Assembly (NCBI RefSeq): GCF_003386535.1
Contig: NZ_QTTN01000034.1
Span: forward strand, 1-64,000
Direction of reading: 5' to 3'
DNA: 64,000 nucleotides
Origin: Paenibacillus taihuensis
GTDB lineage: Bacteria > Bacillota > Bacilli > Paenibacillales > Paenibacillaceae
Under the pieces are notes generated by a model. It saw only the letters and a program-made list of their open reading frames with translations. It was not told the origin of the DNA and made no database searches. Each line of letters begins with the position of its first letter. Within the stretch, counting starts at the first letter, position 1. This document shows positions 7,619 through 11,009 of the stretch, piece after piece. The translations under genes were made by a program, and so were the position numbers.

Positions 7619-7647
7619 ATTATATCAAATGATGAGCAGTATGAGAA
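7619..7647 (-). promoter_or_regulatory. Candidate sigma-A promoter for ruvC-ruvA-ruvB
   Basis: On the minus strand a TTCTCA box (7642-7647) is separated by 17 bases from a perfect TATAAT (7619-7624). It lies between the group II intron and ruvC, so the operon would have its own promoter. The -35 box is weak. Confidence 0.5.
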
Positions 7648-7680: not shown

Positions 7681-8336
7681 ATCGAGTAGGAGGGGGCTGC
7701 TAGCCCCCGACCTCTCACACCACCGTACGTACGGTCCCGTATACGGCGGTTCGTCAAACTTGCCCAACCATGACCACACCATGACCACATGGTTGATGGG
7801 AGGAGTGGCGGTTCATGCCGGAGCCGATTAAGCCCACTTTTATGAGCCGTTCGGGCTTCACCCTTCTTTCTCATAACGTGTTCCAAATTTGGAATTCTGC
7901 TCTTGAACACCTGCTCACGAAATCCCCGCTTATTTCCACTGTCTGACGTTCGGTCCTTCCGTATTTCTACGTACTATGACCTCTGCTGACTTCTGCCAGT
8001 GTAGTCTTGCCTTCCGACAAGGGTTATTCCGAAGGAACACTTGGGCCTTCTTCACTTTCTGACAGATCTCCCCGGGTAAGAGCGATAACTTTCATTCCAT
8101 GTACCCGCCCAATTTACTGCTGTATCCCTTGGCTGTATGGGGCTTTGTCTTGTCTTGGAGACTCGCCCAGATACAACAGCCTCACCTTGGGTTCGTGGTC
8201 CTCGGGTCGGAACTTTGCCGCCGGCTTCCTTCAGATCCCACCTCACGGTCGGCACCCTTGCCTTAGGCTAACGGTTGGTACAGCCAACCTCCGTTCAGGA
8301 CTTTCACCTTAGAGTTATCGCCCATGCCGGGCGCAC
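7681..8336 (-). mobile_element. ORF-less group IIC intron
   Basis: On the minus strand this 656-base element starts GTGCGCCCGG (8336-8327), a standard bacterial group II intron 5' end, and ends in CTACTCGAT at 7681. A 34-base domain V lies at 7719-7752: ACCGCCGTA pairs with TACGGTGGT-type sequence around a bulge. A domain VI hairpin (7692-7708) precedes the 3' end. Internal segments such as TTACCCGGGGAGATCTG and GCAGAAGTCAGCAGAGGTCA resemble group IIC ribozymes like the Oceanobacillus iheyensis intron. It sits 4 bases past the bofC terminator hairpin, the usual target of class C introns. Domain IV holds no reverse transcriptase: only about 250 bases lie between domain III-like sequence and domain V, with no long reading frame. 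It is therefore a deletion derivative, perhaps still splicing-competent. Confidence 0.88.
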
Positions 8337-8340
8337 AAGA

Positions 8341-8374
8341 AGAAGGACGGACCGGGTTACCGGACCGTCCTTCT
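8341..8374 (-). terminator. Terminator after bofC (intron target hairpin)
   Basis: AGAAGGACGG pairs with CCGTCCTTCT, extended past one mismatch by CCGG/CCGG. The hairpin lies 16 bases after the bofC stop. The T-run that should follow is interrupted after TCTT by the group II intron. Confidence 0.8.
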
Positions 8375-8389: not shown

Positions 8390-9043
8390 TCAAAACGACC
8401 GTTTCATCACTTTCTCGACCTTCTCATTGCGGTCGAGCGCATAATCGCTGAACGTTGAAATCACACTGTTGAACTCATCTTTATCCGTGATGCGGATGCC
8501 GTTCATGAGCTGGTCAATCCGCTCCTTAGGCAGGCTGCTCTCCATGTAGTGAACATCGAGCTGGAAGAAGGTACGCATCACCTTCTTCTCCTTCGGCGAG
8601 CCGTCGAACAGCGTCAAATTCCCCGCCTTATCGAGGCTGATATAACCGTTGCGCTTGCAGGATTCGGATAAATCGTCGATGCGCTGTTCCATGACAACTG
8701 CACCGTCCGCATGCATGACCGCATTCCACTCCGGATGCTGCGAAAGCATGCGGAGCGCGGCTTTGGCACTCATTTTGCCGAGCGTTTTCATCTCGTCACC
8801 GCATAAGTAGATCATACGCAGCCTCACATTGACCTGTTCGGACTGCCCCGATAGTGTCTCGATGACACTGTTAGGAGCGTCATTCTGAGGCTGAGGCTTG
8901 TCCGGTTCAGCAGCAGCTGCACTGCCGCCCGTATAGCTGCTGATTAGTATCAATACGGCAGCGATTATACTGCCAAGCTGCCATATCGGGCGGCGGGAAC
9001 GGCGCAGTTTCTGTTTTATTTTTTTCCACAGGCTGAATTCCAT
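8390..9043 (-). CDS. bofC: BofC, intercompartmental sporulation signalling protein
   Basis: BofC is made in the forespore and restrains SpoIVB-dependent activation of pro-sigma-K in the mother cell. The 217-residue product has a positively charged N-terminus, a membrane/signal segment (about residues 20-45, IIAAVLILISSYTG), a linker and a C-terminal domain matching BofC: RMIYLCGDEMKTLGK in the first half and NGYISLDKAGNLTLFDG in the second. The ATG is preceded by AAGGGG. Its position beside the ruv operon is the same as in B. subtilis. The terminator after it carries the group II intron. Confidence 0.9.
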   Translation of the reverse strand: MEFSLWKKIKQKLRRSRRPIWQLGSIIAAVLILISSYTGGSAAAAEPDKPQPQNDAPNSVIETLSGQSEQVNVRLRMIYLCGDEMKTLGKMSAKAALRMLSQHPEWNAVMHADGAVVMEQRIDDLSESCKRNGYISLDKAGNLTLFDGSPKEKKVMRTFFQLDVHYMESSLPKERIDQLMNGIRITDKDEFNSVISTFSDYALDRNEKVEKVMKRSF

Positions 9044-9209: not shown

Positions 9210-10898
9210 TTATTGATTAATCCATGGAAAGCTTCCGCGGCGTTTCGGTTTTGTCGTGCGCACGGTACGGATGACTGGCTTTTTCTTGCGAGCCACTTTC
9301 GCTTTCGGCGCATTCAACTCGATGTTCTCTTCATCAACAAGCTCTTCTTCGTCTTCGCGGCAGCCGCAGTTGCCATTCTTATCGTTTGCGCCTGCGACGA
9401 TTGGCGACACTTGACCGTTTCCCATGTAAGTGTAGCCTTGCGGTCCCATGTTTGCTGGCGATACCATCGAAGGGTCATAGCCGTAGCCATAGCCGCCTTG
9501 CGGGCCAACGTTAGCCGGGGATACCATCGAAGGGTCAAATCCGTAGCCATAACCGCCGTGTGGTCCCATTTCTGCTGGCGACACCATCGTTGGGTTGAAG
9601 CCATAACCGCCCTGTGGTCCCATCTCCGCTGGCGATACCATCCACGGGTTGAAGCCGTAACCGCCTTGTGGTCCCATTTCTGCTGGCGATACCATCGAAG
9701 GGTTAAAGCCGTAGCCGCCTTGTGGTCCCATCTCTGCTGGCGATACCATCGAAGGGTTGAAGCCGTAACCGCCTTGTGGTCCCATCTCTGCTGGCGATAC
9801 CATCGAAGGGTTATAGCCGTAACCGCCTTGTGGTCCCATCTCTGCTGGCGATACCATCGAAGGGTTATAACCATAGCTTGGCGCGCCCCATGGCAATGTC
9901 ATTGGAGGACCCCATTCCGGCCCTTCTTGTGCAGGGCTAACTGCAGTCGGTCCCATGTCGAAGCCATAGCTGCCCCCTGTTGATGCTGGGGACACTGCCG
10001 TCGGGAAGCCGTAGCCGCCTCCTGTCGATGCTGGCGATACCGCTGCCATGTTCATGCCGTAGCCGCCTGTCATCGCTGGCGACACCGCTGCCATGTTCAT
10101 GCCGTAGCCGCCTGTCATTTCCGGCGACACAACGGTCGGATTGCTGAAGCCATAGCCATGCTTCATCGGTCCTTGCGATGCCGGCGATACCGCTTCAGGC
10201 ATCTTCGGCATATCATAAAGCGACATCACTTCTGTTGCAGGCACGCCATACTGCTTAAACAGGTCAACATGCTGCTGCGCTTGGTATACTGGATATTTCT
10301 TCTCCACTACCGGCATTGGAGCTGGTAGCGGTGTAGGTACTGGTTCAGGAATCGGCATCGGAGTCGGTTCAACTGCTTCCGGAAGCACTTCTGGAATTGG
10401 CATTGGCATTGTGCTTGGCTTTTGGCCAGTTGGCTTCTTGCCTGTCGGGATCTTGCTCATCAAGCCTTGAACGCCTTGCATAACCGAGCTTGGCGACAGA
10501 TGATGGTGGTGGCCTGTGCCTTTACCGTTGTTCTCGCTCATCTCATGCATCATCATACCCGAAGAGCCCGGCGTCGGAATGTTCACGATCTCGCCTGTGA
10601 GCAGTACGTTCGGATTTTTAAGCTGCGGATTCGCTTTGATCATATCGCCGAGCGGAACGCCCCACGCCTTCGACAGCTTCCACAACGTGTCCCCTTGCTG
10701 CACAACATGCTGGTGCATGATGTCCATTTGGCCGTTATGATGATTCGAGCCAGTAGGGACTTTCACTTTCATGCCGATGTCGATTTGGTCCGGATTCGTG
10801 ATCTCCGGGTTAAGCTTAATGATTTCTTCCAGCGATACATTGTACTTCTGTGCAATTAGGTATAAGGTATCGCCTTTTTTTACAATATGGATTTTCAC
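9210..10898 (-). CDS. safA: SafA-like spore coat assembly protein with LysM domains and a repeat array
   Basis: SafA organises the inner spore coat and binds cortex peptidoglycan through LysM. The GTG at 10898 is chosen because AGGAGG lies 8 bases upstream; it gives a 562-residue protein starting MKIHIVKKGDTLYLIAQKY. Two N-terminal LysM domains follow each other (KKGDTLYLIA and QQGDTLWKLSKAWG, each ending in a VxVPT/VNIPT-like strand). A Pro/Met-rich linker leads to a long low-complexity region with at least 13 VSPA motifs, including eight near-identical 18-20 residue units (NPSMVSPAEMGPQGG type). The C-terminus has a CGCREDEEE segment and a basic tail. It sits beside bofC, as safA does in B. 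subtilis, but its repeats differ from the B. subtilis protein. Confidence 0.82.
   Translation of the reverse strand: MKIHIVKKGDTLYLIAQKYNVSLEEIIKLNPEITNPDQIDIGMKVKVPTGSNHHNGQMDIMHQHVVQQGDTLWKLSKAWGVPLGDMIKANPQLKNPNVLLTGEIVNIPTPGSSGMMMHEMSENNGKGTGHHHHLSPSSVMQGVQGLMSKIPTGKKPTGQKPSTMPMPIPEVLPEAVEPTPMPIPEPVPTPLPAPMPVVEKKYPVYQAQQHVDLFKQYGVPATEVMSLYDMPKMPEAVSPASQGPMKHGYGFSNPTVVSPEMTGGYGMNMAAVSPAMTGGYGMNMAAVSPASTGGGYGFPTAVSPASTGGSYGFDMGPTAVSPAQEGPEWGPPMTLPWGAPSYGYNPSMVSPAEMGPQGGYGYNPSMVSPAEMGPQGGYGFNPSMVSPAEMGPQGGYGFNPSMVSPAEMGPQGGYGFNPWMVSPAEMGPQGGYGFNPTMVSPAEMGPHGGYGYGFDPSMVSPANVGPQGGYGYGYDPSMVSPANMGPQGYTYMGNGQVSPIVAGANDKNGNCGCREDEEELVDEENIELNAPKAKVARKKKPVIRTVRTTKPKRRGSFPWINQ
9430..9880 (-). repeat. 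In-frame 54/60-bp tandem repeats in safA
   Basis: Eight coding repeats lie head to tail: six of 54 bases (18 residues, unit GYGFNPSMVSPAEMGPQG) and two longer ones of 60 bases with an extra Tyr-Gly. Copies are nearly identical at the DNA level, with most changes at the NP(S/W/T)M position and the YGY/YGF site, suggesting recent expansion. Confidence 0.9.
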
Positions 10899-11009
10899 CC
10901 GCTGAAACCTCCTGTCACGTTCATGCGCCTTACCCGAAAGACGCGGCAAACGCCCGTTATCAATCCCTACATCCTATGCATCAGCTAGGCGAGTGTCACC
11001 CATCCACAT

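What the first reader, a model, noticed from the sequence alone, without database searches (positions are those of the whole stretch)
7681..8336. Compact group IIC intron without reverse transcriptase, inserted at the bofC terminator
A near-complete group IIC ribozyme (canonical 5' GTGCGCCCGG, 34-base domain V, domain VI hairpin, CTACTCGAT 3' end) sits 4 bases past the bofC terminator hairpin. Class C introns use terminator hairpins as targets. Domain IV has shrunk to about 250 bases without a reading frame, so the element cannot move without a protein supplied in trans. It may have interrupted the T-run of the terminator and now lies directly before the ruvC promoter.
Basis: partly seen in the sequence, partly recalled or inferred. 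Interest (0 to 1): 0.75.

Follow-up and report, generated by a model that had tools for sequence, protein, structure and literature searches.

The report
RT-less group IIC intron past bofC
A 656-base self-splicing RNA element has lost its own reverse transcriptase gene yet belongs to a lineage that kept its ribozyme and still jumped behind transcription terminators in at least two bacterial families, so it probably travels on borrowed enzymes, like a bacterial counterpart of a SINE.

Summary
Window 8336..7681 (minus strand) is a complete, 656-bp group IIC intron with no reverse transcriptase (RT). All three Rfam group II models match in order. The two nearest congeners carry the exact empty site. 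EBS1 (AAGA) pairs 4/4 with the IBS1 (TCTT) that follows the bofC terminator hairpin. It is not a lone wreck. Full-length RT-less relatives of 649-653 bp, 75-79% identical and including domain IV, occur in an Alicyclobacillus plasmid and two more genomes of that order. A. ferrooxydans TC-34 holds at least 5 copies with identical 5' ends at 5 different terminators. All RT-less copies share one junction where the RT gene was removed, and their D1-D3 cores group together (72/97 support): one old ORF loss, then spread. They keep the pre-ORF hairpins of domain IV (DIVa), conserved by compensatory changes in RT-bearing relatives too. Most hosts encode intact class-C RTs; this assembly has at least 13 RT fragments at contig ends. 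Best reading: a non-autonomous, trans-mobilised IIC lineage, the class-C parallel of the Thermosynechococcus ORF-less introns, in the size class of HYER ribozymes. Mobility and splicing are inferred, not shown.

The parts
7681..8336 (-). complete RT-less group IIC intron, 656 bp, 5' GTGCG...CTACTCGAT 3'
   Evidence: three Rfam models in order; exact empty site in two congeners
8341..8374 (-). bofC intrinsic terminator hairpin (target stem-loop of the insertion)
   Evidence: 5'-exon fold -27.3 kcal/mol, z -7.8
8337..8340 (-). IBS1 (TCTT), last four bases of the 5' exon
   Evidence: covaries with EBS1 over 25 introns
8153..8156 (-). EBS1 (AAGA, intron positions 181-184), pairs 4/4 with IBS1
8081..8252 (-). 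domain I core (RF02001)
   Evidence: 132.1 bits
7953..8026 (-). domain II-III / start of IV (RF01998)
   Evidence: 62.6 bits
7753..7952 (-). domain IV, about 200 nt, no RT gene
7821..7916 (-). DIVa: outer helix plus two hairpins, homologous to the pre-ORF part of RT-bearing introns (candidate RT docking site)
   Evidence: 14 pairs, 93.4% of cells paired, 8 pairs with double changes
7763..7800 (-). cap hairpin CCCATCAACCATG...CATGGTTGGG at the point where the RT gene was lost; shared by all RT-less relatives
7681..7751 (-). domains V and VI (CGC triad, bulged A in D6)
7619..7647 (-). ruvC promoter-like site TTCTCA-17-TATAAT with extended TG, conserved in congeners
8390..9043 (-). bofC (upstream gene)
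   Evidence: PF08955
7060..7563 (-). ruvC (downstream gene)
   Evidence: PF02075

Best explanation
This is a member of a non-autonomous group IIC intron lineage. One ancestral RT-bearing intron lost its RT gene by a single internal deletion in domain IV, from just before the start codon to the last codons. It kept the whole ribozyme core and the DIVa hairpins, and a new short hairpin closes the gap. Its RNA is proposed to be spliced and carried by class-C RTs encoded by other introns in the same cell. The RNA-protein particle then reverse-splices into single-stranded DNA behind a terminator hairpin, guided by the 4-base EBS1/IBS1 pairing; here it entered once, behind bofC. Shown by sequence: the intact core, the exact insertion, the EBS1/IBS1 match, the shared junction of the ORF loss, identical ends at several sites in one relative, and RT genes in most hosts. 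Inferred: RT binding at DIVa, splicing, and mobility in trans.
For: Rfam D1 scores of RT-less members (132-140 bits) lie in the range of the other IIC introns scanned (111-148), so the core is not decaying. Precise insertion. EBS1/IBS1: 90% of pairs over 25 introns, z 7.8, next column 3.7; window 4/4. RT-less relatives at full length, each past a hairpin. A. ferrooxydans: five identical 5' ends at five sites; six 3' ends, four of them identical. One RT-deletion junction shared by all. RT-less clade 72/97 in the D1-D3 tree. DIVa covariation 0.487 against 0.175 in shuffles. Intact class-C RTs in G832, G422, G452, G366 and on the Alicyclobacillus plasmid; 13 RT C-terminal fragments at contig ends in the window's own genome.
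Against: The window copy is single in its genome, so no recent movement of this copy is visible. The RT-less clade has only moderate bootstrap support (72). One host (G473, 2.5 Mb, fragmented) shows no class-C RT. No intact RT is assembled in the window's own genome. Splicing, RT binding and mobility are untested. That DIVa binds the RT is known for IIA introns (stated in PMC2882425) and only assumed for IIC.
Confidence: 0.8

Rival explanations
1. Dead remnant: an RT-bearing intron inserted behind bofC, later lost its RT gene locally, and is now immobile and decaying.
For: Single copy in this genome; decaying remnants do occur, e.g. the 334-bp deleted copy on contig C9 and the G832 copy lacking D1-D3.
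Against: The same deletion junction is found in other genera; the core and EBS1/IBS1 are intact; relatives without RT are multi-copy.
Confidence: 0.12
2. HYER-like element: an IEP-less IIC ribozyme whose selected activity is sequence-guided hydrolysis of DNA, with the RT dispensable or only occasionally used.
For: Same class, no IEP and same size (0.6 kb) as described for HYERs (PMC11403445, PMC11127173); EBS1 guides the target.
Against: Not exclusive of trans-mobilisation; DIVa is kept, which a pure DNA-cutting ribozyme would not obviously need; insertion still needs cDNA synthesis. The primary HYER paper was not held.
Confidence: 0.25
3. Domesticated regulator: the intron was kept at this place to insulate ruvC from bofC read-through or to tune the ruvABC promoter.
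For: It lies right after the bofC terminator and 34 bases from a conserved promoter-like site.
Against: No comparable intron in the 22 other genomes of the genus, and an empty site in the two closest; terminator targeting alone explains the position; relatives lie behind unrelated genes.
Confidence: 0.03

Closest known systems
Thermosynechococcus elongatus ORF-less introns TeI3 (Mohr et al. 2010, PMC2882425)
   Same: One ancestral ORF deletion in domain IV, DIVa retained, later proliferation, RT in trans ('driver' IEPs).
   Different: Those are introns of another class within one genome, with experimental mobility; here class IIC, terminator-targeted, spread over two bacterial families, no experiment.
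HYER, hydrolytic endonucleolytic ribozymes (Liu et al. 2024 Science, cited in PMC11403445 and PMC11127173)
   Same: IEP-less group IIC introns of about 0.6 kb with short guide sequences.
   Different: DNA cleavage was shown for HYERs; here nothing biochemical is known. Whether this lineage was in their set could not be checked (paper not held).
RT-bearing group IIC introns of Bacilli (e.g. G345, G237, G264, G160)
   Same: D1-D3 (up to 90% in D1), DIVa, D5/D6 and terminator site.
   Different: They are 1.87-1.89 kb with an intact class-C RT.
C.te.I1 of Clostridium tetani (PMC3919590)
   Same: ORF-less intron in a Gram-positive bacterium.
   Different: No IEP anywhere in that genome, and it splices alternatively in a surface-layer protein gene.

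Membership tests
group II intron, class IIC | D1-D3 core and D5/D6 in canonical order | tested here: met
   RF02001, RF01998, RF00029 in order on one strand, all above cut-offs
group II intron, class IIC | insertion directly after an intrinsic terminator hairpin | tested here: met
   hairpin ends 4 nt upstream, empty site in congeners
group II intron, class IIC | short EBS1-IBS1 pairing to the 5' exon | tested here: met
   AAGA x TCTT, position identified by covariation, z 7.8
group II intron, class IIC | catalytic triad in D5 and bulged A in D6 | tested here: met
   CGC triad, bulged A between CCT and CTC
group II intron, class IIC | splicing activity | not testable with these tools
   needs RT-PCR or an in vitro assay
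ORF-less, trans-mobilised group II intron (T. elongatus type) | no RT gene in domain IV | tested here: met
ORF-less, trans-mobilised group II intron (T. elongatus type) | single shared deletion followed by proliferation | tested here: met
   shared junction, clade 72/97 (moderate), multi-copy in A. ferrooxydans
ORF-less, trans-mobilised group II intron (T. elongatus type) | DIVa retained | tested here: met
ORF-less, trans-mobilised group II intron (T. elongatus type) | compatible RT in the same cell | tested here: inconclusive
   intact class-C RTs in most hosts; only contig-end fragments in G000; none in G473; compatibility untested
ORF-less, trans-mobilised group II intron (T. elongatus type) | mobility in trans shown | not testable with these tools
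   needs a mobility assay
HYER | IEP-less IIC intron of about 0.6 kb | tested here: met
   definition
HYER | hydrolytic cleavage of DNA | not testable with these tools
   biochemistry needed

The most novel reading that the evidence does not exclude
An old RT-less IIC lineage persists and spreads across bacterial families as a genuine non-autonomous retroelement (a bacterial SINE analogue), kept mobile by selection on its ribozyme core and DIVa docking hairpins. This would contradict the review view that bacterial introns without an IEP have lost mobility and do not last.
Probability: 0.6. Interest if true: 0.55.

Novelty: new member of a known kind. Interest (0 to 1): 0.42.

Why it matters
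A review of the field (PMC4424553) says that group II introns without an IEP have lost retromobility, are rare in bacteria and that non-mobile derivatives do not persist long. Here one ORF loss appears to be older than the split between the copies now seen in the window's family and in Alicyclobacillus-type hosts, and descendants still show identical copies at several sites. That makes relaxed RT specificity in class IIC directly testable and offers natural compact IIC ribozymes with a known EBS1 for tool work. Because surveys usually start from the RT gene, such elements are easily missed.

Tried and rejected
EBS1 was first guessed in the CCAUACAG loop; covariation over 25 introns rejected that and placed it at positions 181-184. 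Exact-pattern scan of viral contigs for the domain IV motif: none. Phage records: only partial IIC matches. Weak CM hits in G078, G093, G160, G345, G237 and others looked like more RT-less introns; those checked were RT-bearing introns sharing only DIVa. The TIGR04416 search found only one weak RT match in G000, because the RT genes lie in collapsed repeats at contig ends. A direct deletion from the RT-bearing introns now in this genome was rejected: they are only 70-73% identical in D1. The HYER and Simon 2008 papers were not held.

Full report
Observation. On the minus strand of window 8336..7681 three Rfam models match in canonical order and over their full lengths: domain I core (RF02001, 132 bits), domains II-III (RF01998, 62.6 bits) and D5/D6 (RF00029, 45.7 bits). 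The ends are GTGCG and CTACTCGAT. D5 has a CGC triad, D6 a bulged A. The whole RNA folds better than shuffles (z -3.0). There is no RT: the longest stop-free stretch is 97 codons and tblastn with a class-C RT finds nothing in the locus. Domain IV is about 200 nt.

Insertion. Neighbours are bofC (PF08955) and ruvC (PF02075), both on the minus strand. In the two closest congeners, G001 and G021, homology runs straight through ...CCTTCTTCTT|TGCC..., so the element is an exact 656-bp insert without target duplication. None of the 22 other genomes of the genus has a comparable intron. The bofC hairpin (8341-8374) ends 4 nt before the intron; the terminator tail TTCTTCTT remains. A conserved ruvC promoter-like site begins 34 nt beyond the intron.

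Target recognition. Over 25 IIC introns with known 5' exons, one variable tetranucleotide in domain I pairs with the last four exon bases in 90% of cells (z 7.8 against shuffled exons; next best column 3.7). This is EBS1. In the window it is AAGA (8153-8156) and pairs perfectly with IBS1 TCTT (8337-8340). RT-bearing introns of the same genome carry AACA and sit behind TGTT in 8 of 10 copies.

Relatives. A full-length match, 75.8% identical including domain IV and also without RT, lies on plasmid NZ_CP044435.1 of Alicyclobacillus sp. TC. A domain IV pattern found Alicyclobacillus ferrooxydans TC-34 and a Bacillota MAG; a search of 59 genomes of that order added G473 and G452. Lengths are 649-656 bp. 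In A. ferrooxydans five 5' ends are identical over 123 nt and lie behind five different hairpins. Six 3' ends exist, four of them identical over 119 nt; most of these contigs break inside the copies, as repeats do. In the window's own family, G832 has a relative that has lost D1-D3. A covariance model of the RT-less domain IV hits with high score only the window, G832 and the MAG among about 800 genome draws; weaker hits that were checked are RT-bearing introns.

Origin. RT-bearing relatives (1.87-1.89 kb) share D1-D3, D5/D6 and, before the RT start codon, a hairpin pair that the RT-less introns keep. On 14 sequences 14 pairs are formed in 93.4% of cells, 8 pairs with changes on both sides, covariation score 0.487 against 0.175 in shuffles. 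After this region all RT-less members share CCCATCAAC(C/T)ATG...CAT(A/G)GTTGGGCAAG or a close variant, absent from RT-bearing introns, which folds as a cap hairpin. The last codons of the RT seem to survive as GQV-stop in the window copy (inference). The D1-D3 tree puts the four complete RT-less introns together (72/97; 76% of bootstrap trees). A single ORF loss is the simplest account.

Mechanism. Four other host genomes (G832, G422, G452, G366) have intact class-C RTs, as does the Alicyclobacillus plasmid. The window's own assembly has at least 13 RT C-terminal fragments, all at contig ends; the introns there fall into two families by their 5' ends. G473 shows none. The proposal is that such RTs recognise DIVa, help the RNA splice and copy it after reverse splicing into single-stranded DNA behind a terminator. 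In Thermosynechococcus this division of labour was shown for ORF-less introns of another class (PMC2882425). For class IIC the RT-binding role of DIVa is assumed.

Standing in the literature. Zimmerly and Semper (PMC4424553) call ORF-less bacterial introns rare, describe introns without IEPs as having lost retromobility, and suggest that non-mobile derivatives do not persist long. Preference of class-C introns for terminators is well known (PMC8919778). IEP-less group II ribozymes of 0.6 kb that cut DNA are known as HYERs. The finding is therefore a new, well-supported member of a known kind. Its interest lies in the cross-family RT-less lineage, and less in the single insertion behind bofC.

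Noticed in passing
G000 contig ends, e.g. L002-L006, L008-L020: At least 10 intron 5' ends and 13 RT C-terminal fragments at contig ends show that two RT-bearing IIC families are multi-copy and collapsed in this assembly (EBS1 AACA, IBS1 TGTT).
   Followed up: partly
L090 (G000:C9:82820-83153): A 334-bp internally deleted IIC remnant of another family, also behind a terminator hairpin.
   Followed up: partly
L230 1544-1998; L231 3212-2758 (G714, G724): D5/D6 of one RT-bearing group II intron is followed within about 80 nt by the D1-D3 core of a second IIC intron with no D5 found downstream: tandem insertion into an intron end, or a circularly permuted arrangement.
   Followed up: partly
L232 / L111 (G832:C1 about 1205430-1205710): RT-less relative that has lost D1-D3 by internal deletion, still behind a terminator hairpin.
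   Followed up: partly
window 9210-10949 (-): LysM protein (SafA-like) with about a dozen tandem repeats of the type MVSPAEMGPQGGYGFNPS.
   Followed up: no
window 7770-7800 (-): An 11-bp tandem duplication (TGTGGTCATGG) in the cap hairpin of the window intron, absent from all relatives.
   Followed up: no
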